64,000 bases of DNA from Lichenicola cladoniae (GTDB lineage Bacteria; Pseudomonadota; Alphaproteobacteria; Acetobacterales; Acetobacteraceae). Location: positions 3,725,501 through 3,789,500 of the forward strand of contig NZ_CP053708.1 of NCBI RefSeq assembly GCF_013201075.1, given 5' to 3'. Position numbers and translations under genes: made by a program. Shown here one piece after another: positions 942 through 50,669 of this stretch; position 1 is the first letter of the stretch, and each line of letters opens with the position of its first letter. Under the pieces are notes generated by a model. The model did not search any database. It had not been told where the DNA came from and worked only from the letters and a program-made list of their open reading frames with translations.

Positions 942-2021
942 TCACCGGATCGGCCGCGAGCCGGGCGGCGGACGCTGCAGCCGCCAGACATAGGCGATGA
1001 TCCCGGCGACCACCTGGAAATGTTCCTGCGGGATCTCCTGGTCGAGCGGCACGGTGTAGAGCGCCCGGGCCAGCGGCGGATTCGCGACCAGCGGCACCTT
1101 GTTGTCCTCGGCGATGGCGCGAATCCGGGCCGCGATCTGGTCCACGCCCTTGGCGATGATCCTCGGAGCACCCTTGCCACCCTGGTCGTAGGCGAGCGCC
1201 ACCGCGAAATGGGTCGGGTTGACGATCACCACCGTTGCCCGGGACACCGCATCCATCATGCGCCGCTTCGAACGCTGCCGGCGTATCTGGCGCTGGCGGG
1301 CCTTCACGTGCGGGTCGCCGTCGCTTTCGCGCTGCTCGTCGCGCAGTTCCTGCTTGCTCATGCGCAGCTTCGACATGTGCCGGTAGCGCACCCAGCCCAC
1401 GTCCAGCCCGGCGATGACCGCCTGCACCCCCAGCAACATTAGCAGCGCATGCATCACCACCCCGGCGGCACGGTTCGCCAGCGTTCCGGCGTCCCAGGCG
1501 GTCGAGCCCAGGAGCACGGGCCATAATCCTTCGAGGACGTGACGCAGCACGAGCGCGAACGCGATCAGCTTGACCAGCGCCTTCAGCGTCTCCATCAGAT
1601 TGTCGCCGCCGACGATCCGCATCAGCCCTTTGGCCGGGCTCAACCGGCCGAGTTGCGGCATCAGCCCGGCCGGACGGAGCAGGAACCCGGTCTGCAGCAG
1701 CGTGATCCCCACCACGCCGCCGACCGCCGCAAGAACGACCGGCGCCGCGAGGCCGACACCGAGCAACAGCATCTCGCGGATGACCGCCGTGCCGCCGGCG
1801 CTCATGTCGACCTGCCCGACGCTGCTCATCAGGCGCTGCATCCCCAGGATGAAATGCGTGGTCCGCGCCGGACCGGTCATCGACATCGCCAGCAGCGCGC
1901 AACCGATCACCGTCACCGACTGCAACTCGCGGGACAGGGCGACCTGCCCCTCCCCGCGCGCAGTCTCGAGGCGCCGCGCCGACGGGCCCTCGGTCCGGTC
2001 GTCCTTTTCCGAAGCGGCCAC
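942..2021 (-). CDS. flhB: Flagellar export apparatus switch protein FlhB
   Basis: FlhB is the inner-membrane gate and substrate-specificity switch of the flagellar type III export apparatus. The 359-residue protein has a hydrophilic N terminus (EGPSARRLETAR), four hydrophobic segments between about residues 35 and 210, and a cytoplasmic domain with the autocleavage motif NPTH at 268-271. The start is GTG, 6 bases after the fliR stop. It is the last gene of the minus-strand run flgB-flgC-fliE-fliQ-fliR-flhB. The C terminus is somewhat shorter than in enteric FlhB. The intact NPTH argues against a diverged virulence homologue that has lost switching. Confidence 0.96.
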   Translation of the reverse strand: MAASEKDDRTEGPSARRLETARGEGQVALSRELQSVTVIGCALLAMSMTGPARTTHFILGMQRLMSSVGQVDMSAGGTAVIREMLLLGVGLAAPVVLAAVGGVVGITLLQTGFLLRPAGLMPQLGRLSPAKGLMRIVGGDNLMETLKALVKLIAFALVLRHVLEGLWPVLLGSTAWDAGTLANRAAGVVMHALLMLLGVQAVIAGLDVGWVRYRHMSKLRMSKQELRDEQRESDGDPHVKARQRQIRRQRSKRRMMDAVSRATVVIVNPTHFAVALAYDQGGKGAPRIIAKGVDQIAARIRAIAEDNKVPLVANPPLARALYTVPLDQEIPQEHFQVVAGIIAYVWRLQRPPPGSRPIR

Positions 2022-2027
2022 CCGGCG

Positions 2028-2801
2028 TCAGAGCCCGGGAAGCGAGGCGAAGCTGGTCGAGACGCTGGAAAGCCATCCTTCCAGCATCCGCTGCAGCACC
2101 AGCCCGAATACCAGCAGCCCGCCGAGCACCTGTCCTGGCAGTGCCAGCGAATAGACCTGCAGCGACGGAACCAGCCGTGCCAGCAGGCCGAGCATCACCT
2201 GCCAGACCAGCCCGGCAATCACCAAAGGTGCTGCCAGCTGCAACGACATTGCGAAGCAGGCTTCCGTCGCCCGGGCCACGCTCTGCGCCGCATCGCCCAC
2301 TGGCAGCAGGGTGCCGGGCGGAAACAGCCGGTAGCTGCCGGCCAGGGCGCCGAGCGGCAAGGCATACAGACCCGAGGACAGGATCAGCACGGGACCGGCC
2401 AGTGCCAGCAGCCGGCTGGTGCCGCTGGTCTGCGACCCGAGCTCGGGATCCGGCTGCAACACGCTGGACAGGCCGATCTGCACCGCCGCGATCTGGCCGG
2501 CGATCGGCAGGGCCAGCGCCATCAACCTCGCCAGCCAGCCGATCAGCAGGCCGACCAGCAACTCGCCGCCGACCAATGCCAATATCCGCAACGGCTGTTC
2601 GCCGACATGCGGGATCAGCGTTTCGACACCGGGCAGGATCAGCCCGGTGATCGCCAAGGCGAGCCCGGCGCGCACCATCATCGGCGCGTCGCTCTCACCG
2701 AAACCCGGCAGGACCATGATCGCCGCACTGACCCGCGATAGCACGATCGCGAAGCCGAACGCCCAGTCCGGCAGGGAGGCGAGCAGCAGGTCATCGGTCA
2801 T
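2028..2801 (-). CDS. fliR: Flagellar export protein FliR
   Basis: FliR is an integral-membrane core subunit of the flagellar type III export gate, which it forms with FliP and FliQ. The 257-residue product is highly hydrophobic with about six predicted membrane spans. It shows family features such as the early LSRVSAAIMVLPGFG segment and the LLVGLLIGW stretch. It lies 27 bases downstream of fliQ and 6 bases before flhB, the usual fliQ-fliR-flhB order. The ATG at 2801 has only a weak ribosome site, so expression is probably coupled to fliQ. Confidence 0.94.
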   Translation of the reverse strand: MTDDLLLASLPDWAFGFAIVLSRVSAAIMVLPGFGESDAPMMVRAGLALAITGLILPGVETLIPHVGEQPLRILALVGGELLVGLLIGWLARLMALALPIAGQIAAVQIGLSSVLQPDPELGSQTSGTSRLLALAGPVLILSSGLYALPLGALAGSYRLFPPGTLLPVGDAAQSVARATEACFAMSLQLAAPLVIAGLVWQVMLGLLARLVPSLQVYSLALPGQVLGGLLVFGLVLQRMLEGWLSSVSTSFASLPGL

Positions 2802-2828
2802 CCGCGACCGGGCCCGCCGCCGGCACGG

Positions 2829-3101
2829 TTATTGGCCACCGGACGCGATCAGCCGGTCGAACAGCAAATGCGTGTAGTCGGTCAGCGTCACGAACATGAA
2901 CGGACCGGCGATGGTCAGCGCGACCCCGAGCGCCAGCAGCTTGGGCACGAACGCCAGCGTCGATTCATTGAGCTGGGTGACAGCCTGGATCAGCGAAATG
3001 ACCAGCCCGACCACCAGCGCCGCGACGAGCGCCGGCGCGGACAGCTTGAGCACCACCATGAACATGTCACGCAGGATCAACCCGACGTCACCTTCCTGCA
3101 T
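2829..3101 (-). CDS. fliQ: Flagellar export protein FliQ
   Basis: FliQ is a small two-helix membrane subunit of the flagellar export gate. The 90-residue product has two long hydrophobic helices (about residues 17-42 and 52-76), joined by the conserved QAVTQLNESTLAFVPK loop. I start it at the ATG at 3101. A longer reading from TTG at 3119 would place the AGGAGGG ribosome site inside the gene, whereas that site sits 5 bases before the 3101 ATG. It is flanked by fliE and fliR in the same direction. Confidence 0.95.
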   Translation of the reverse strand: MQEGDVGLILRDMFMVVLKLSAPALVAALVVGLVISLIQAVTQLNESTLAFVPKLLALGVALTIAGPFMFVTLTDYTHLLFDRLIASGGQ

Positions 3102-42167: not shown

Positions 42168-44348
42168 CTAGGGCCTCGGCGGGAAGATCGCACTGTCGCC
42201 ACAAAGACCTTCGAACATCGGGCGCGCGAAGTAGAAGCCTTGCATGAACCTGCCTCCGACCGATCGCAAGGCCTCGACTTCACCGATCCGTTCGACGCCC
42301 TCGAGTATGACCTCGGTTCCAATTTTGGCGCACATCGCGATCAGACCTGCAATGATCGCGAGGCGCGCCTGGTTATGGTCGCAATCCTTTACGACAGCCT
42401 GATCGAGCTTGATGATATCGGGCCTCAGATCCGCAAGCCGGGAGAGGCCGGAATAACCGGTTCCGAAATCATCCAAGGCCATTTTGAAGCCCAACCGGCG
42501 GTACTCGCCCATGACGTTGAGGAGATGCGCCGTGTCTATGACCGTTTCCGTCTCTATCAGTTCGAAGGTCAGCTGGCTGCATTGGAAGCCGGTCCGGGCG
42601 GCGACGTTCAGTGTCTCGCGCATGCACGAGATGGGGTCATAGATCGCGTTCGGCAGCAGGTTGATGTTGAGTCTTCGATCCAGCTTGAGGCGAGCCGCCA
42701 TCTCTATGGCCTTGGTCCTGCATGCCTGGTCGAAGACATAGAGATTATCGTGCGTGACCTGGGAGAGGACGTGAGACGCGCGTTCACCTTCCGGTCCGCG
42801 AACGAGGGCCTCGTAGGCATAGATGTGATTGTCGGCCAGATCGACGATCGGCTGGAACGCCATGCTGAACTGGAACAGGTCGACATCAGGTTTCAGCGCA
42901 GCGATATTGGTCAACGGTGCCGACAGGTATGGCAATGACGTCGGCCTGAAGGGCGGCAGTGGGACGATGGCGTCCACAACCTCGATGCGTGGATCGTTGC
43001 CCGCGGTTGAAAGCTGGGACAGCGTTCTCCGTGCCAGGAGACCTGAACGACCGGCCAGACTGAAGACCTTGTTTCGACCGGCTCGCTTCGCGTCATACAG
43101 CGCAGTATCCGCATTGCCCAGCATCTGTTTCAGGTCGGCGTTGCCTCCGTCGGACACGCCGGCGCTGATCGTCAATCCAACCGGCGTGCCCTCATGCATC
43201 ATCTGCAGGCTTGCCACGCCCACACGTGATCGCTCGATGATATGCTCTGCCTGATCGAACGTAACGCCAGCCATCAACACGGCGAACTCTTCACCGCCCA
43301 GGCGGCCGACGAGATCGGTGTCCCGGGCTTCCATCTGCAGCACCTGGGCAACCGCCCGAAGCGCGCCGTCTCCGATGACGTGACCATGGGTATCGTTGAC
43401 CATCTTGAAATGATCGACGTCCACCATCGCGATACAGCATTCCGTGCCGGCTCTTGCATGGCGGAGCAACTCCTGCTCGGCAAGATCGAAGAACGAGCGC
43501 CGGTTGAGAACGCCGGTCAGAAAGTCGGTGGTCAGTGCGCGCCGCAGCTCTTCAGCCGAGTGACGCCGCTGCGTGATGTCGCGCACCACCATCAAGTAGC
43601 GCATCAGCGGCGGATCGATGTTGTCCACGTCCAGCGGCGACACCATGCACGTCGCCCAGAAGCGACTTCCATCCGCCCGAACCCGCCATCCCTCGTCGAG
43701 ATGCCAACCGTCCCGGTCGGCGATGACCAGACGCTGGTTGAACTCGGCTTCACTGGACCCGGCCGACGCGACAATGCTGCTCGAGTGTCTTGTGAGCGCT
43801 TCGGCCGTGTCGATCCCGAACAACCGCGTTCCCGACAGGTTCCAGTCGCAGATCTGTCCGGACAGGGTGAGCCCGAGTATCGCGTAATCATCGGCACCCT
43901 GCAGCAGGGCGGTGAACCAGGCCTCGTTTTCCTTGACCCGACGCTCCTGTGCCACCTGGGTGCTGATATCGGACAGCACGGCCAGGTGCCGGTTGGCATC
44001 CATGCGCACGACGGTCAGCGCCAGCACCGCCGGATCCTGCCCCAGTGCCACCGCGCCAAGATGAACCCGCACCCCGTCGCAGACAGTGCCGCGGACGATC
44101 GGTTTCGCGAGCAGGGTCCTCAGGTCGGGCAGGAATGGCTCGAGCAGCTGGACCAGGTTATCGAGCGGACATTCCGGCGTCGCCAGCGGCATCGTCAGGC
44201 AGGAGAAGGCCGGATTGACCATGCTGATCGTACCGTCGCGGTCGAACTGCGCCATGCCATGCGGGCATAGATACATGAACTCGAGCAGCGATTCCTGATC
44301 AGGTTCGTGAAAATCATCCTCGAGCGGCTCCTGCGCTCGCTCAGACAC
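42168..44348 (-). CDS. PAS-PAS-GGDEF-EAL cyclic-di-GMP enzyme coupled to PYP
   Basis: The 726-residue protein has two PAS-like domains (about 18-135 and 140-262), a diguanylate cyclase domain with an intact GGEEF site at 351-355 and an inhibitory RxxD site at 342-345, and an EAL phosphodiesterase domain with E513, N563, E596, D626-D627, K647 and E683 all present. Both activities, making and breaking cyclic-di-GMP, therefore look competent. No membrane helix is seen. Its GTG/ATG-proximal region overlaps the stop of the photoactive-yellow-protein gene by 8 bases, so the two are translated together and the PYP is the obvious light input. Confidence 0.95.
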   Translation of the reverse strand: MSERAQEPLEDDFHEPDQESLLEFMYLCPHGMAQFDRDGTISMVNPAFSCLTMPLATPECPLDNLVQLLEPFLPDLRTLLAKPIVRGTVCDGVRVHLGAVALGQDPAVLALTVVRMDANRHLAVLSDISTQVAQERRVKENEAWFTALLQGADDYAILGLTLSGQICDWNLSGTRLFGIDTAEALTRHSSSIVASAGSSEAEFNQRLVIADRDGWHLDEGWRVRADGSRFWATCMVSPLDVDNIDPPLMRYLMVVRDITQRRHSAEELRRALTTDFLTGVLNRRSFFDLAEQELLRHARAGTECCIAMVDVDHFKMVNDTHGHVIGDGALRAVAQVLQMEARDTDLVGRLGGEEFAVLMAGVTFDQAEHIIERSRVGVASLQMMHEGTPVGLTISAGVSDGGNADLKQMLGNADTALYDAKRAGRNKVFSLAGRSGLLARRTLSQLSTAGNDPRIEVVDAIVPLPPFRPTSLPYLSAPLTNIAALKPDVDLFQFSMAFQPIVDLADNHIYAYEALVRGPEGERASHVLSQVTHDNLYVFDQACRTKAIEMAARLKLDRRLNINLLPNAIYDPISCMRETLNVAARTGFQCSQLTFELIETETVIDTAHLLNVMGEYRRLGFKMALDDFGTGYSGLSRLADLRPDIIKLDQAVVKDCDHNQARLAIIAGLIAMCAKIGTEVILEGVERIGEVEALRSVGGRFMQGFYFARPMFEGLCGDSAIFPPRP

Positions 44349-44718
44349 GCGAGATCAGTATCCAGCGCGGTGAGGATGTAAGCCCGGTCAACATGCGAAG
44401 CCGCACCCGGGTCGGCCGCATCCGGAACGTCAGCACATACGGGATGATCTCATCGAGTTCGGTCTCGTTATTGAGACGCTCTGCAACCAGGTAGTTGTTC
44501 ATGCAGGGCGCGACGTCGAAGAAACAATGCCGTCCGACCACCCGGTCGCGGCTCAGTCCTGAACAACGCTCCTCGTACTGATTGTATTTTTCGACCATGG
44601 ACCCGGCATCCAGGCCGAGAACTCCGAATGACAGGCCATCCATCGCCTGCACGGTCATGTTCGAGAGGGCTTCGAGCATGTGTTCCGCCTCGAACGCTAA
44701 ACTCGTTTCAATATTCAA
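44341..44718 (-). CDS. pyp: Photoactive yellow protein homologue
   Basis: PYP is a blue-light receptor: a small PAS protein with p-coumarate thioester-linked to one cysteine. This 125-residue protein has the same length as the classic Halorhodospira protein, and its central part aligns without gaps. DVAPC places the chromophore cysteine at C72 (classic C69), and Tyr45 and Glu49 match the phenolate-binding Tyr42 and Glu46. The arginine at classic position 52 is a leucine here. The N terminus LAFEAEHMLEALSNM matches the PYP cap, which supports the TTG start at 44718 despite a poor ribosome site. It is followed by the GGDEF-EAL gene and diverges from an acyl-CoA ligase gene. Confidence 0.9.
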   Translation of the reverse strand: MNIETSLAFEAEHMLEALSNMTVQAMDGLSFGVLGLDAGSMVEKYNQYEERCSGLSRDRVVGRHCFFDVAPCMNNYLVAERLNNETELDEIIPYVLTFRMRPTRVRLRMLTGLTSSPRWILISRV

Positions 44719-44816
44719 GATTTTTGACCATGAATCATCTATACCGACGCGGGCTTGCCTCTACAAGTATGGACTGATTTGGTTCATGACACGTTAAGCT
44801 GACACTGTTTAAAATA

Positions 44817-46085
44817 ATGGAAGTCGAAAGCGGGATGTTCGCCGTCGACAACTTAATGAGAAAGAGCAAGCCCGCCGTGATGAGACGACCGAGGGCATGG
44901 TGGGGAAGCGATCGCGCGACCTTGTCGAGGGTGCTGGCACACCAGCTTCATGCGGAGTTTGCTCGGCTCCGGCTTGGCAGTACCAGCGCCGTCCCGCCCT
45001 GGCTGTGGAACGATGAAACGGTCCTCTCGGAGATGCTCGGCGAGGATGTGGACTCGCTCGACCTCATGTCGCTGTCGGCCGCCGTCGCGGAACTGCTTCC
45101 TGGTTACAGCGTCGAGCCGGGACTCATTCGGACGGCGGCATTCGGAGCATGGTGCGCCGCCGCTGCGGACAGCGTGCGGGACCAACCGACCACCGTAACG
45201 TTCCGGTCGTCCGGAAGTACTGGAATCTCCAGGTCCACGACCCACCCGCTCGCCCAACTCGAAGAGGAAGCCGCGTCGCTCGCCATACTGTTGGGAACCG
45301 GCCGCCGCCGGGTGATGTCGGCCGTCCCGGCCCATCATGCCTACGGCTTCATCCATTCGGTGTTGCTGCCGCGACATCTCGGCGGTCTGCCGCTGGAAGA
45401 TCTTCGACATCATAATCCATCCGAACTGACCGTGCAGCTGCGGCCTGGGGATCTGGTGCTCGGTCATCCGGCTTTCTGGCACGCGGCAGTGCGGGGTATG
45501 CTCAAACCGTTCCCGGCGGACGTCGTCGCCGTGACATCTTCAGCGCCATGCCCGCCGGCCACGGCTCTTGATCTGGAGCGTGCCGGGCTTGTGCGGCTGG
45601 TGCAGGTCTATGGCACTTCCGAGACCGCCGGGATCGGATGGCGGGACGATCCGCTCGCGCGATACACCCTGCTTCCGGCCTGGCAACGCGACGGGCATGG
45701 GTTGAAGCGTGACGGACAGCCGGTCGAGCCGCCGGATCGACTGGACTGGGACGGGAACGACCGCTTCCACGTGCTCGGCCGTCACGACCAGTCGATCCAG
45801 ATCGGCGGGCTGAATGTCGATCCCAAACAGGTGCGCGATACATTGTCGGCACATCCCGAAGTCGCCTGTGTCGCGGTCCGGATGATGCGTGCCGACGAGG
45901 GCCAGCGACTCAAGGCGTTCGTCGTTCCTCGAATCGAAGATTGCGACCGGACGCGCCTGAGAGCCGATCTGCGCCGCTTCGCCACCGCGGCGTTGCCTCC
46001 GCAGGATCGGCCAGGCGCCTATAGTTTCGGTCCGGCCTTGCCGGTGAACGATCTGGGAAAGGCCGCTGACTGGCTCGTCGTCTGA
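44817..46085 (+). CDS. AMP-forming ligase, probable p-coumaroyl-CoA ligase for PYP
   Basis: The 422-residue protein is a compact adenylate-forming acyl-CoA ligase with the phosphate loop SSGSTG at 131-136 (arginine replaces the usual lysine after it), YGTSETAG at 265-272, the hinge region GRHDQSIQIGGLNV at 321-334 and the catalytic lysine K415 in LGKAADW. It is shorter than typical 500-560-residue ligases. Small ligases of this kind lie beside pyp genes in Rhodobacter, where they make p-coumaroyl-CoA for chromophore loading. The divergent pyp gene 98 bases away gives this assignment. The ATG at 44817 lacks a good ribosome site; ATG 44835 or 44880 is possible. Confidence 0.82.
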   Translation: MEVESGMFAVDNLMRKSKPAVMRRPRAWWGSDRATLSRVLAHQLHAEFARLRLGSTSAVPPWLWNDETVLSEMLGEDVDSLDLMSLSAAVAELLPGYSVEPGLIRTAAFGAWCAAAADSVRDQPTTVTFRSSGSTGISRSTTHPLAQLEEEAASLAILLGTGRRRVMSAVPAHHAYGFIHSVLLPRHLGGLPLEDLRHHNPSELTVQLRPGDLVLGHPAFWHAAVRGMLKPFPADVVAVTSSAPCPPATALDLERAGLVRLVQVYGTSETAGIGWRDDPLARYTLLPAWQRDGHGLKRDGQPVEPPDRLDWDGNDRFHVLGRHDQSIQIGGLNVDPKQVRDTLSAHPEVACVAVRMMRADEGQRLKAFVVPRIEDCDRTRLRADLRRFATAALPPQDRPGAYSFGPALPVNDLGKAADWLVV

Positions 46086-46323: not shown

Positions 46324-47184
46324 TCATGCAGCCCAGCGCGCAACCAGTGCGCCGATCGCGCGGAGCAAGGCTTCGCCGTCATCCATATCGAGATCCGATT
46401 TCTCGTAATACACCGCAATCAACAGCGGCGAACGGCCTGGCGGATAGGCGATCGCGTAGTCGTTGCACACCGAATTGGTTGTCCCGGTCCGGTCGCCCGT
46501 GGTCCAGCCCTCCGGGAAGCCGGCGCGGACCCGCCGCCCGCCGACGACGTTGGCCGCCATCCAGCGGTTGTTCAATGCACGCGTGGGTGGACGAAGCACG
46601 TCGCCGAGACTGATGCGGGCGGCCACCGCCGCAATCGCGCGCGGGGTGGTGGTGTCCTTCATGCCGGACCAGCCCCCGACGAGTTCGTAGCGATCCACGC
46701 GCGTGACCGTGTCGCCAAGCGAGCGCAGCCAGCCGGTAAGCGCCGGTGGCCCGCCGATGCGGCGGAGGAGCAGGTTGGCCGCGGTGTTGTCGCTCCGCTC
46801 CAGGATCGCCTCGACGAGCGTTCCGACGGCGAGCACGCCGGCCGCGACATGCGCGGTCGTTATCGGCGAGGCCGGCAGCAGGTCGTGCTGGCCATAGGGG
46901 ACCAGGTGGGCGAGGTCGTCGTGCCCCGCATCCACGCGGGCGAACACCATCGCGGCGAGCGGCCCCTTGAACGTGCTTGCAAGCAGGAAGCGCTCGTCGG
47001 CACGGTGGGCAAGGGTGCGTCCGGTTCCGGTATCCTGCACGAAGACGCCGAGGCGCCCTCCGTGTTGCCGCTCGAGCGCGGCGATCGCGTCGCCGCCCTC
47101 GGCGCGGGCAGGACCAGCCCTTCCGGCAACGATCGCGCCGAATCCGGCGGCAACGAAGCCGCGACGGGAAGGCCATGCATTCAT
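46324..47184 (-). CDS. Class A beta-lactamase-like protein, Tat-type signal
   Basis: The 286-residue protein begins with a twin-arginine-like signal (SRRGFVAAGFGAIVAGRAGPARA). It has the serine beta-lactamase motifs STFK (70-73), SDN (131-133) and an omega-loop glutamate (E167 in DRYE). The third motif reads RTG (232-234) instead of KTG, as in the carbenicillinase group, and the residue near position 170 is not the usual asparagine. It would hydrolyse beta-lactams in the periplasm, but altered loops make the spectrum uncertain. No regulator is adjacent. The 46086-46323 gap before it shows no gene or terminator that I can support. Confidence 0.85.
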   Translation of the reverse strand: MNAWPSRRGFVAAGFGAIVAGRAGPARAEGGDAIAALERQHGGRLGVFVQDTGTGRTLAHRADERFLLASTFKGPLAAMVFARVDAGHDDLAHLVPYGQHDLLPASPITTAHVAAGVLAVGTLVEAILERSDNTAANLLLRRIGGPPALTGWLRSLGDTVTRVDRYELVGGWSGMKDTTTPRAIAAVAARISLGDVLRPPTRALNNRWMAANVVGGRRVRAGFPEGWTTGDRTGTTNSVCNDYAIAYPPGRSPLLIAVYYEKSDLDMDDGEALLRAIGALVARWAA

Positions 47185-49772: not shown

Positions 49773-50669
49773 CTAGGCCAGATCCGCCGTCGGTGGAACC
49801 GGAAGACGTGCGTGCGACACGCTTACGGAGCGGTCCAGCAAGCCTCCGGCGAGTGCGGCCGGCCAGACCAGTGGGCCACGCATGGACATGGCCCAATGCT
49901 TCGGCTGGCCGCTACCGCGATCGTGCGGATCCGGATTGCCGCCCGGGCTGCGGAGAGCAAGCATCATGGGAAGGTCATCGAGAAACACTTTTACCAGGGT
50001 CGGATCATAGCGACGGCCAGCCTCGACGGCGATGTGTCGCGCTGCATTCTCGATCGACCATGCGGTCCCGTTAAGTCGCTCCGACGCCAAGGCATCGAAT
50101 GCATCGGCGAGTGCGACGATCCGCGCGCCGATCGGGATATCGTCGGCGGCGAGTCTTCGCGGGTAGCCTTCGCCGTTCCAAAACTCGTGGTGACACAGAG
50201 CCAGCTCGGCTGCGAACTCGAACGCCGGCGACGGGGTGCCGACCAGCAGGCGTGCCCCGACCTCGGTATGGCGTTGCAGGATGCCGAGCTCACGCTCGTC
50301 CAGCAGTCCGGATTTGCACAGAATCGCCTCGGGAACCGAGATCATGCCGATGTCGTACAGCGGGATCGCTGCGATCAGCCCTTCGGTCTCGGCTGGCTCA
50401 AGCCCGGCGAGTGTCGCCAGCCTGCGTACCATCGCCCCGACCCGGACCTGCGACGGGCTGGCGGACAGACGTGCCAGCTTCGCCAGCATTGTGTCGGGCG
50501 CGGCGTGAAATATGGTGAGAACCAGCCTGCGCCGAATCCGTTGGTGCCGAACCAGCAGCCAGACTCGCAGCAGCCACCAGACCGCCAGCAGAAGCCCGGT
50601 AGACAAGAGTGCGAGCGGTAGCACGGAGGCCAGAAAATGAGAGCCGGGAGAACGAGCCGTCAAAAACAA
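49773..50669 (-). CDS. HD-GYP-like protein with degenerate metal site
   Basis: HD-GYP proteins hydrolyse cyclic-di-GMP at a bimetal centre. This 298-residue protein has an N-terminal membrane helix (about 15-38). Its HD-GYP-type domain keeps HTEVGA and CHHEFWNGEGYP (GYP at 168-170), but the hallmark HD pair is YD at 105-106, and an earlier metal histidine position is glutamine (SQVRVGAM). Catalysis is doubtful; it may be a cyclic-di-GMP sensor. The start is TTG 50669 with AAGGA 8 bases upstream. It lies about 60 bases upstream of the ABC exporter gene. Confidence 0.8.
   Translation of the reverse strand: MFLTARSPGSHFLASVLPLALLSTGLLLAVWWLLRVWLLVRHQRIRRRLVLTIFHAAPDTMLAKLARLSASPSQVRVGAMVRRLATLAGLEPAETEGLIAAIPLYDIGMISVPEAILCKSGLLDERELGILQRHTEVGARLLVGTPSPAFEFAAELALCHHEFWNGEGYPRRLAADDIPIGARIVALADAFDALASERLNGTAWSIENAARHIAVEAGRRYDPTLVKVFLDDLPMMLALRSPGGNPDPHDRGSGQPKHWAMSMRGPLVWPAALAGGLLDRSVSVSHARLPVPPTADLA

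What the first reader, a model, noticed from the sequence alone, without database searches (positions are those of the whole stretch)
42168..46085. Self-contained PYP light-sensing locus with cyclic-di-GMP output
Three linked genes: a 125-residue photoactive yellow protein homologue with Tyr45, Glu49 and Cys72 matching the classic chromophore residues (Y42, E46, C69) and a gap-free central alignment; a PAS-PAS-GGDEF-EAL enzyme with both catalytic sites intact, overlapping pyp by 8 bases; and a divergent compact adenylate-forming ligase fit to make p-coumaroyl-CoA. Light input, chromophore activation and second-messenger output are all encoded within 4 kb. A direct PYP link to a dual GGDEF-EAL protein is known only in fused forms to my recollection; a free-standing, translationally coupled version would be unusual.
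Basis: partly seen in the sequence, partly recalled or inferred. Interest (0 to 1): 0.9.

Follow-up and report, generated by a model that had tools for sequence, protein, structure and literature searches.

The report
Blue-light sensor wired to c-di-GMP enzyme
A small protein that looks like a blue-light sensor sits in an operon with an enzyme that, by its motifs, can both make and break the bacterial messenger c-di-GMP; such pairs are already published, but the start of the enzyme belongs to an unnamed domain that accompanies this branch of light sensors almost without exception and may be where the sensor plugs in.

Summary
The three genes are real and at the stated coordinates. The pyp product keeps Tyr45, Glu49 and Cys72, resembles 'clade C' PYPs, and overlaps its partner gene by 8 bases. 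The partner is PAS-like/PAS/GGDEF/EAL with catalytic motifs intact; a 4-coumarate-CoA-ligase-like gene diverges upstream. New here: the partner's N-terminal domain ('partN', residues 17-141), whose window copy matches no Pfam or NCBIfam family, is a near-obligate companion of clade-C PYPs. In 50 genomes chosen for such a pyp, 93 of 93 partN hits lay downstream of one; 58 of 59 clade-C-scoring pyps had it immediately downstream, 0 of 15 others. In 392 genomes drawn from the family of a Massilia, 95 of 96 strong-partN genomes carried such a pyp, and 95 of 95 the reverse. Behind partN the output changes (GGDEF, GGDEF-EAL, histidine kinase). I read partN as the PYP receiver. Partner genes without adjacent pyp exist, and a co-divergence test was not robust.

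The parts
44341..44718 (-). pyp, clade-C-like photoactive yellow protein, 125 aa, TTG start
42168..44348 (-). partner gene: partN - PAS - GGDEF - EAL, 726 aa, GTG start
44341..44348 (-). 8-base overlap of pyp and partner; also 8 bases in the second genomic copy
43926..44300 (-). partN: partner residues 17-141, divergent PAS-like domain, near-obligate behind clade-C pyp; proposed PYP receiver
43569..43880 (-). second PAS domain (PAS_9), residues 157-260
43068..43529 (-). GGDEF domain, GGEEF active site with RxxD five residues upstream
42219..42872 (-). EAL domain; best NCBIfam model RimA (290 bits, below its cut-off of 430); 63% identical to a stand-alone EAL gene beside pyp in Lichenicoccus (L041)
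44817..46085 (+). pyp-type 4-coumarate-CoA ligase-like gene, divergent from pyp
44719..44816 (.). 98-base intergenic region between divergent pyp and ligase; one promoter-like match on + strand (1 found in 44600-44900, shuffles mean 0.2)

Best explanation
A clade-C PYP, loaded with p-coumarate by the neighbouring ligase, acts as a separate light-sensing subunit. It docks on the N-terminal PAS-like domain (partN) of the co-translated partner, probably as a PAS-PAS contact. Its light-driven change is passed through the helix after partN to the second PAS and on to the GGDEF/EAL pair, shifting c-di-GMP. Shown: gene content, motifs, overlap, and the near-exclusive pairing of clade-C pyp with partN across genomes and outputs. 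Inferred: chromophore binding, docking, control of activity. The sign of the light effect cannot be predicted.
For: 50 whole genomes holding a clade-C pyp: 93 of 93 partN hits lie on the same strand downstream of one (59 with the match starting within 200 bp, 34 within 4 kb); 58 of 59 pyps >=140 bits have partN immediately downstream, 0 of 15 lower-scoring pyps. 392 drawn genomes of the family of G323: 95 with both, 1 partN only, 0 pyp only, 296 neither. Window's family, 299 genomes: 17 of 20 partN hits >=100 bits directly follow a pyp or (G270) a pyp fragment; the other 5 hits score <24 bits. 79 of the 80 kept loci have partN right after pyp; in L144 the contig ends. First partner after 82 clade-C pyps in those loci: GGDEF 59, GGDEF+EAL 12, HK 3, EAL 1, no such output found 6, none 1; the 3 kinases confirmed by Pfam. 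All 93 partN-linked PYPs lie on one side of a branch, SH-aLRT 99. PYP divergence tracks partN more than PAS2 or GGDEF of the same gene.
Against: No experiment, no structure or complex model. partN genes without adjacent pyp: G143, G235, G156, G416, a second site in G440, distant partN-EAL genes in G361, G422, G441 and (on another contig) G418. The co-divergence contrast vanishes without Massilia/Pseudoduganella, 0.45 against 0.39. The 50 genomes were chosen for a pyp; related genomes are not independent; searches scored only about 10-13 candidates per genome. Window pyp is atypical: Cys65 at Phe62, Ser53 at Thr50. A PAS-like domain could instead sense a ligand or dimerise.
Confidence: 0.6

Rival explanations
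1. partN is an ordinary ligand-sensing or dimerisation PAS (perhaps for p-coumarate or its CoA ester) that travels with pyp because the operon spreads as one piece; PYP acts on the second PAS, the output domain or another protein.
For: partN has weak PAS signatures; copies without adjacent pyp exist; operon linkage alone gives co-occurrence; the co-divergence contrast is not robust.
Against: partN persists while outputs behind it change, including kinases with no second PAS between (L091, L095, second genes of L100 and L105). Many operons carry it in two genes (34 further hits). Lower-scoring pyps, which keep the chromophore residues, lack it: 0 of 15.
Confidence: 0.25
2. PYP and the partner are only co-transcribed; PYP signals elsewhere and light does not act on this GGDEF-EAL protein.
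For: No direct test. The genome has 37 other GGDEF hits that could serve c-di-GMP.
Against: Near-strict pairing of clade-C pyp with partN genes.
Confidence: 0.1
3. The PYP is not a working photoreceptor: too divergent, or without chromophore supply in this organism.
For: Cys at Phe62, Leu at Phe96, Ser at Thr50. The only aromatic lyase found is distant and, translated by eye, fits neither the TAL nor the HAL selectivity motif as I recall them.
Against: Tyr/Glu/Cys kept in both genomic copies; ligase next door with intact motifs; p-coumarate could be taken up.
Confidence: 0.1

Closest known systems
Clade C PYPs next to GGDEF/EAL genes (Xing, Gumerov, Zhulin 2022, PMC9664959)
   Same: Free-standing PYP with adjacent c-di-GMP gene; loss of Phe92 and Phe96, retained Met100; model in which PYP modulates the adjacent GGDEF/EAL protein.
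   Different: The parts read (abstract, section 4, passages) do not describe a shared N-terminal domain in the neighbours. The window PYP keeps Trp119 and its partner joins GGDEF and EAL in one chain.
pyp operons with GGDEF/EAL (Dohmen et al. 2025, PMC12826048)
   Same: 113 predicted pyp operons: GGDEF in 29, EAL in 22, pCL in 42.
   Different: Section 8 says information is insufficient for mechanistic explanations; no partN-like domain in the parts read (abstract, sections 5 and 8, passages).
Ppd of Thermochromatium tepidum (PYP-phytochrome-GGDEF/EAL fusion; as described in PMC9664959, PMC12826048)
   Same: PYP input to GGDEF/EAL output.
   Different: There PYP is fused with a phytochrome and carries E46Q; here PYP is a separate protein with Glu, and the partner has no phytochrome match.
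Idiomarina loihiensis PYP and adjacent GGDEF (as cited in PMC9664959)
   Same: Free PYP proposed to act on a neighbouring c-di-GMP gene and biofilm.
   Different: Clade A according to that paper; I did not examine its partner for partN.
Lichenicoccus roseus locus (L041 in G086)
   Same: pyp, then partN-PAS-GGDEF (41% over 417 aligned positions), then EAL (63% over 230).
   Different: Two separate genes there, one gene in the window.

Membership tests
PYP family | Cys for thioester, with Tyr42 and Glu46 equivalents | tested here: met
   Cys72, Tyr45, Glu49
PYP family | Curated TIGR02373 score >=143 bits | tested here: not met
   68.6 bits; PMC9664959 reports that this model covers about 20% of BLAST-identified homologues
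PYP family | Binds p-coumarate and shows a photocycle | not testable with these tools
   needs protein
PYP clade C (Xing 2022) | Loss of Phe92 and Phe96, retained Met100 | tested here: met
   Ile, Leu, Met at those positions
PYP clade C (Xing 2022) | Loss of conserved Trp119 | tested here: not met
   Trp in both genomic copies; Tyr in 82% of partN-linked PYPs. The paper gives this as lost conservation, not as a strict criterion
PYP clade C (Xing 2022) | Groups with Burkholderiales PYPs in a tree | tested here: met
   one side of a branch with SH-aLRT 99, quick method, few columns; not placed on the published tree
Dual GGDEF-EAL c-di-GMP enzyme | Intact GGDEF and EAL catalytic motifs | tested here: met
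Dual GGDEF-EAL c-di-GMP enzyme | Cyclase and phosphodiesterase activity | not testable with these tools
   needs assay
pyp-type 4-coumarate-CoA ligase | TIGR02372 score >=334.7 | tested here: not met
   269.7. Of 8 other pyp-linked ligases scanned, 6 beside clade-C pyps are below (241-316); 2 beside other pyps are above (345, 363), one of which (L113) lies between an other-clade pyp and a clade-C pyp
pyp-type 4-coumarate-CoA ligase | Adenylate-forming motifs and C-terminal Lys | tested here: met
   (motif names recalled)
PAS domain (for partN) | Recognised by a curated Pfam PAS model | tested here: not met
   window partN: 0 families at E<=1. Of 103 members, 10 match PAS_8, 6 PAS, 5 PAS_4 at E<=1, best E 0.0003; cut-offs not shown per member
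PAS domain (for partN) | PAS fold in a structure or model | not tested
   prediction switched off

The most novel reading that the evidence does not exclude
partN is a dedicated, portable PYP-receiver domain: one sensory subunit (clade-C PYP) plugs into any protein carrying it, so cyclases, phosphodiesterases and histidine kinases, often two genes in one operon, take the same light signal. This would supply the missing direct partner for a whole branch of the PYP family.
Probability: 0.55. Interest if true: 0.8.

Novelty: new variant of a known kind. Interest (0 to 1): 0.6.

Why it matters
How free PYPs pass on their signal is an open question: PMC9664959 says the downstream partner of H. halophila PYP was never identified, and a 2026 abstract (PMC13250908, seen only in the search listing) says it remains unidentified. 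If partN is the receiver, the question becomes a binding and activity test on two small domains, and partN would be a modular blue-light input for engineered signalling.

Tried and rejected
Rejected: 'known only as fusions', contradicted by two papers. Rejected: partN as a second PYP-type domain; profile comparison gives probability 4.6%. Considered: a shorter pyp starting at Met14; disfavoured because Phe9 is nearly invariant in the clade. Considered: unlinked partN genes serving another photoreceptor; Pfam on 9 ORFs near five of them (G143, G235, G156, G416, G440) showed no photoreceptor domain, but 4 of the 9 had no match at all, and neighbours of the G361, G422, G441 and G418 genes were not scanned. 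Tried: co-divergence test: 0.59 vs 0.20 (GGDEF) and 0.10 (PAS2) in 71 loci; 0.67 vs 0.27 when controlling for GGDEF alone; 0.78 vs 0.18 in 54 Burkholderiales-like loci; 0.45 vs 0.39 in 49 loci without Massilia/Pseudoduganella (bootstrap fraction 0.60); 0.38 vs 0.13 for 45 second partners (fraction 0.79). Tree of first against second partN copies: clustered, not resolved, long branches. Contact prediction between the proteins was not attempted: too few diverse pairs. Literature searches for a described partner domain: (open-licence PMC papers only; supplements not readable here).
Full report
OBSERVATION. The window lies in an unnamed 6.06 Mb genome. A same-family genome, G086, gives partN hits at the same contig coordinates and scores as G312, reached through a Lichenicoccus roseus record, so the family is probably Acetobacteraceae. 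pyp (44341-44718, -) and the partner (42168-44348, -) overlap by 8 bases; the ligase (44817-46085, +) starts 98 bases away in the opposite direction. PYP identity rests on TIGR02373 (E 5e-19, below cut-off), alignment to solved PYPs and the three chromophore residues. Partner motifs for cyclase, RxxD site and phosphodiesterase are intact. In the own-genome search the window ligase was the top TIGR02372 hit (269.6 bits); the next was 90.

WHAT IS ALREADY KNOWN. PMC9664959 (abstract, section 4 and passages read) defines three PYP clades; clade C lost conservation of Phe92, Phe96 and Trp119, keeps Met100, had no characterised member, and is often adjacent to GGDEF genes. PMC12826048 (abstract, sections 5 and 8 and passages read) lists GGDEF in 29, EAL in 22 and pCL in 42 of 113 predicted pyp operons. 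The window locus is therefore a member of a published kind.

THE PARTNER DOMAIN. Sixteen partner genes from the window's family share an N-terminal domain of about 130 residues with ten invariant columns (A2). The window copy matches no Pfam family at E<=1 and no NCBIfam family at E<=0.01. A few of 103 members give weak PAS or sensor-kinase hits, as does the profile against solved PAS domains (best E 0.0098). A4 held the window copy, 79 of 82 first-partner matches (L089 fragments and L125 left out) and 23 of 49 second ones. I call the domain partN. A scan with a seven-sequence clade alignment found 272 relatives and kept the best 80 loci, mostly Burkholderiales. In 79 of 80 a partN match follows pyp immediately (split by a frame change in L089); in L144 the contig ends about 150 bases after pyp. 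Of 82 clade-C pyps there, 53 have two partN matches within 4.5 kb, 28 one, 1 none; the 53 include L089 (one split gene), L086 and L138 (second match behind the next pyp), and L110 and L154 (both matches in one ORF).

EXCLUSIVITY. I could search 50 of the 80 loci's genomes whole in one call. All 93 partN hits at E<=1e-6 lie downstream of a clade-C pyp on the same strand: 59 start within 200 bp (two of them pieces of one split gene in G343) and 34 within 4 kb. Of 59 pyps scoring >=140 bits, 58 have partN within 200 bp; the exception (G336) has an in-frame TAG. None of 15 lower-scoring pyps has it downstream, though one (G348) lies within 5 kb of a clade-C operon on the other strand. These genomes were selected for a pyp. 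In 392 genomes drawn from the family of G323 (record title Massilia sp. 9I), 96 have strong partN and 95 have clade-C pyp, 95 in common. Before that count I set aside one weak partN genome (G587, E 5.6e-5) and eight genomes whose only pyp hit scored under 30 bits. Fisher p is about 1e-91 but takes genomes as independent, and about 10 candidates per genome were scored. In 299 genomes of the window's own family there are 20 partN hits >=100 bits in 15 genomes, up to 13 candidates per genome scored; 17 follow a pyp (G270 only a fragment), three do not (G143, G235, G156). G235 has no pyp by the clade profile; for G156 only the single-sequence search was run. partN genes away from pyp also occur in G416, G440, G361, G422, G441 and G418; all of these but G416 have a clade-C pyp elsewhere in the genome. 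Exclusivity is strong, not absolute.

OUTPUT SWAPPING. Behind partN: GGDEF, GGDEF+EAL, EAL, HisKA-HATPase (L091, L095, second genes of L100 and L105), PAS-HisKA-HATPase-REC (L127), GGDEF with kinase domains (L046), and PAS plus an unmatched region (L086, L049). Of the domains seen, only partN is common to all. The window protein looks like a fusion of two neighbours that are separate in Lichenicoccus. In the same genome a second pyp (58% identical, Tyr/Glu/Cys kept) overlaps by 8 bases a gene that is partN alone, 137 aa, ending near the position after which the window partner continues to its second PAS; no further match to the partner was found behind it. A pCL-like gene (>150 bits) lies in 24 of the 80 fetched stretches.

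TREE AND SIGNATURES. In a tree of 119 PYPs (quick method, SH-aLRT only, few columns) all 93 partN-linked PYPs lie on one side of a branch at 99, with two other rows inside: L144 (contig end) and L046_7971 (first of a tandem pyp-pyp-partN). Clade-specific residues of the window protein include Asn75, Val78, Ala79, Thr97, Arg99, Leu107 and Arg108, candidates for an interface (inference).

CO-DIVERGENCE. With 71 loci of one architecture, partial correlation of PYP distance with partN was 0.59 (bootstrap 0.33-0.73), with GGDEF 0.20 and with PAS2 0.10. Subsets gave 0.78 vs 0.18, 0.45 vs 0.39 and, for second partners, 0.38 vs 0.13. This is supportive but depends on the Massilia group.

MECHANISM. 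The simplest reading is a two-protein photoreceptor: PYP as separate light subunit, partN as its receiver, output variable. Gene facts are shown; chromophore loading, docking and control are inferred; the sign of the light effect is unknown. The only aromatic lyase found in the genome is about 0.6 Mb off, so p-coumarate supply is open.

Noticed in passing
L039:8001-8763 (G000:C1 about 4277991-4278753): Second intact pyp in the window's genome followed by a partN-only gene; the region lies between two same-strand 348-aa ORFs (L039 4614-5660; L195 7485-8531) that look IS30-like (recalled, not searched). Could be a relic or a free partN.
   Followed up: partly
L077 about 1310-2870 (-) (G000:C1:4368003-4369328): Only aromatic ammonia lyase hit of the genome; translated by eye, its selectivity site fits neither the HAL nor the TAL motif as I recall them, and it lies beside what looks like an ornithine-cyclodeaminase-type gene (by eye, not searched).
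   Followed up: no
L049:6871-7995, L138:588-1700, L086:2913-3992: partN-PAS proteins whose last 120-135 residues match no Pfam family in the two scanned (L049, L086); possibly a further output type.
   Followed up: partly
L239:2847-5309 (G707): Two successive partN genes behind pyp, one ending in a partial GGDEF, the other in a PAS-like stretch and an unmatched region.
   Followed up: partly
L046:7971-8757 (G143): Tandem pyp genes before one partN gene.
   Followed up: no
window 49773-50669 (-): Gene with an HD_5 domain (106 bits), possibly a further c-di-GMP phosphodiesterase of HD-GYP type near the locus.
   Followed up: no
window 46324-47184 (-): Class A beta-lactamase (NF033103, 244.7 bits, over cut-off) next to the ligase; apparently unrelated.
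   Followed up: no
window 44341-44718: pyp is 56.6% G+C against 66.7% for the window, a hint of transfer.
   Followed up: no
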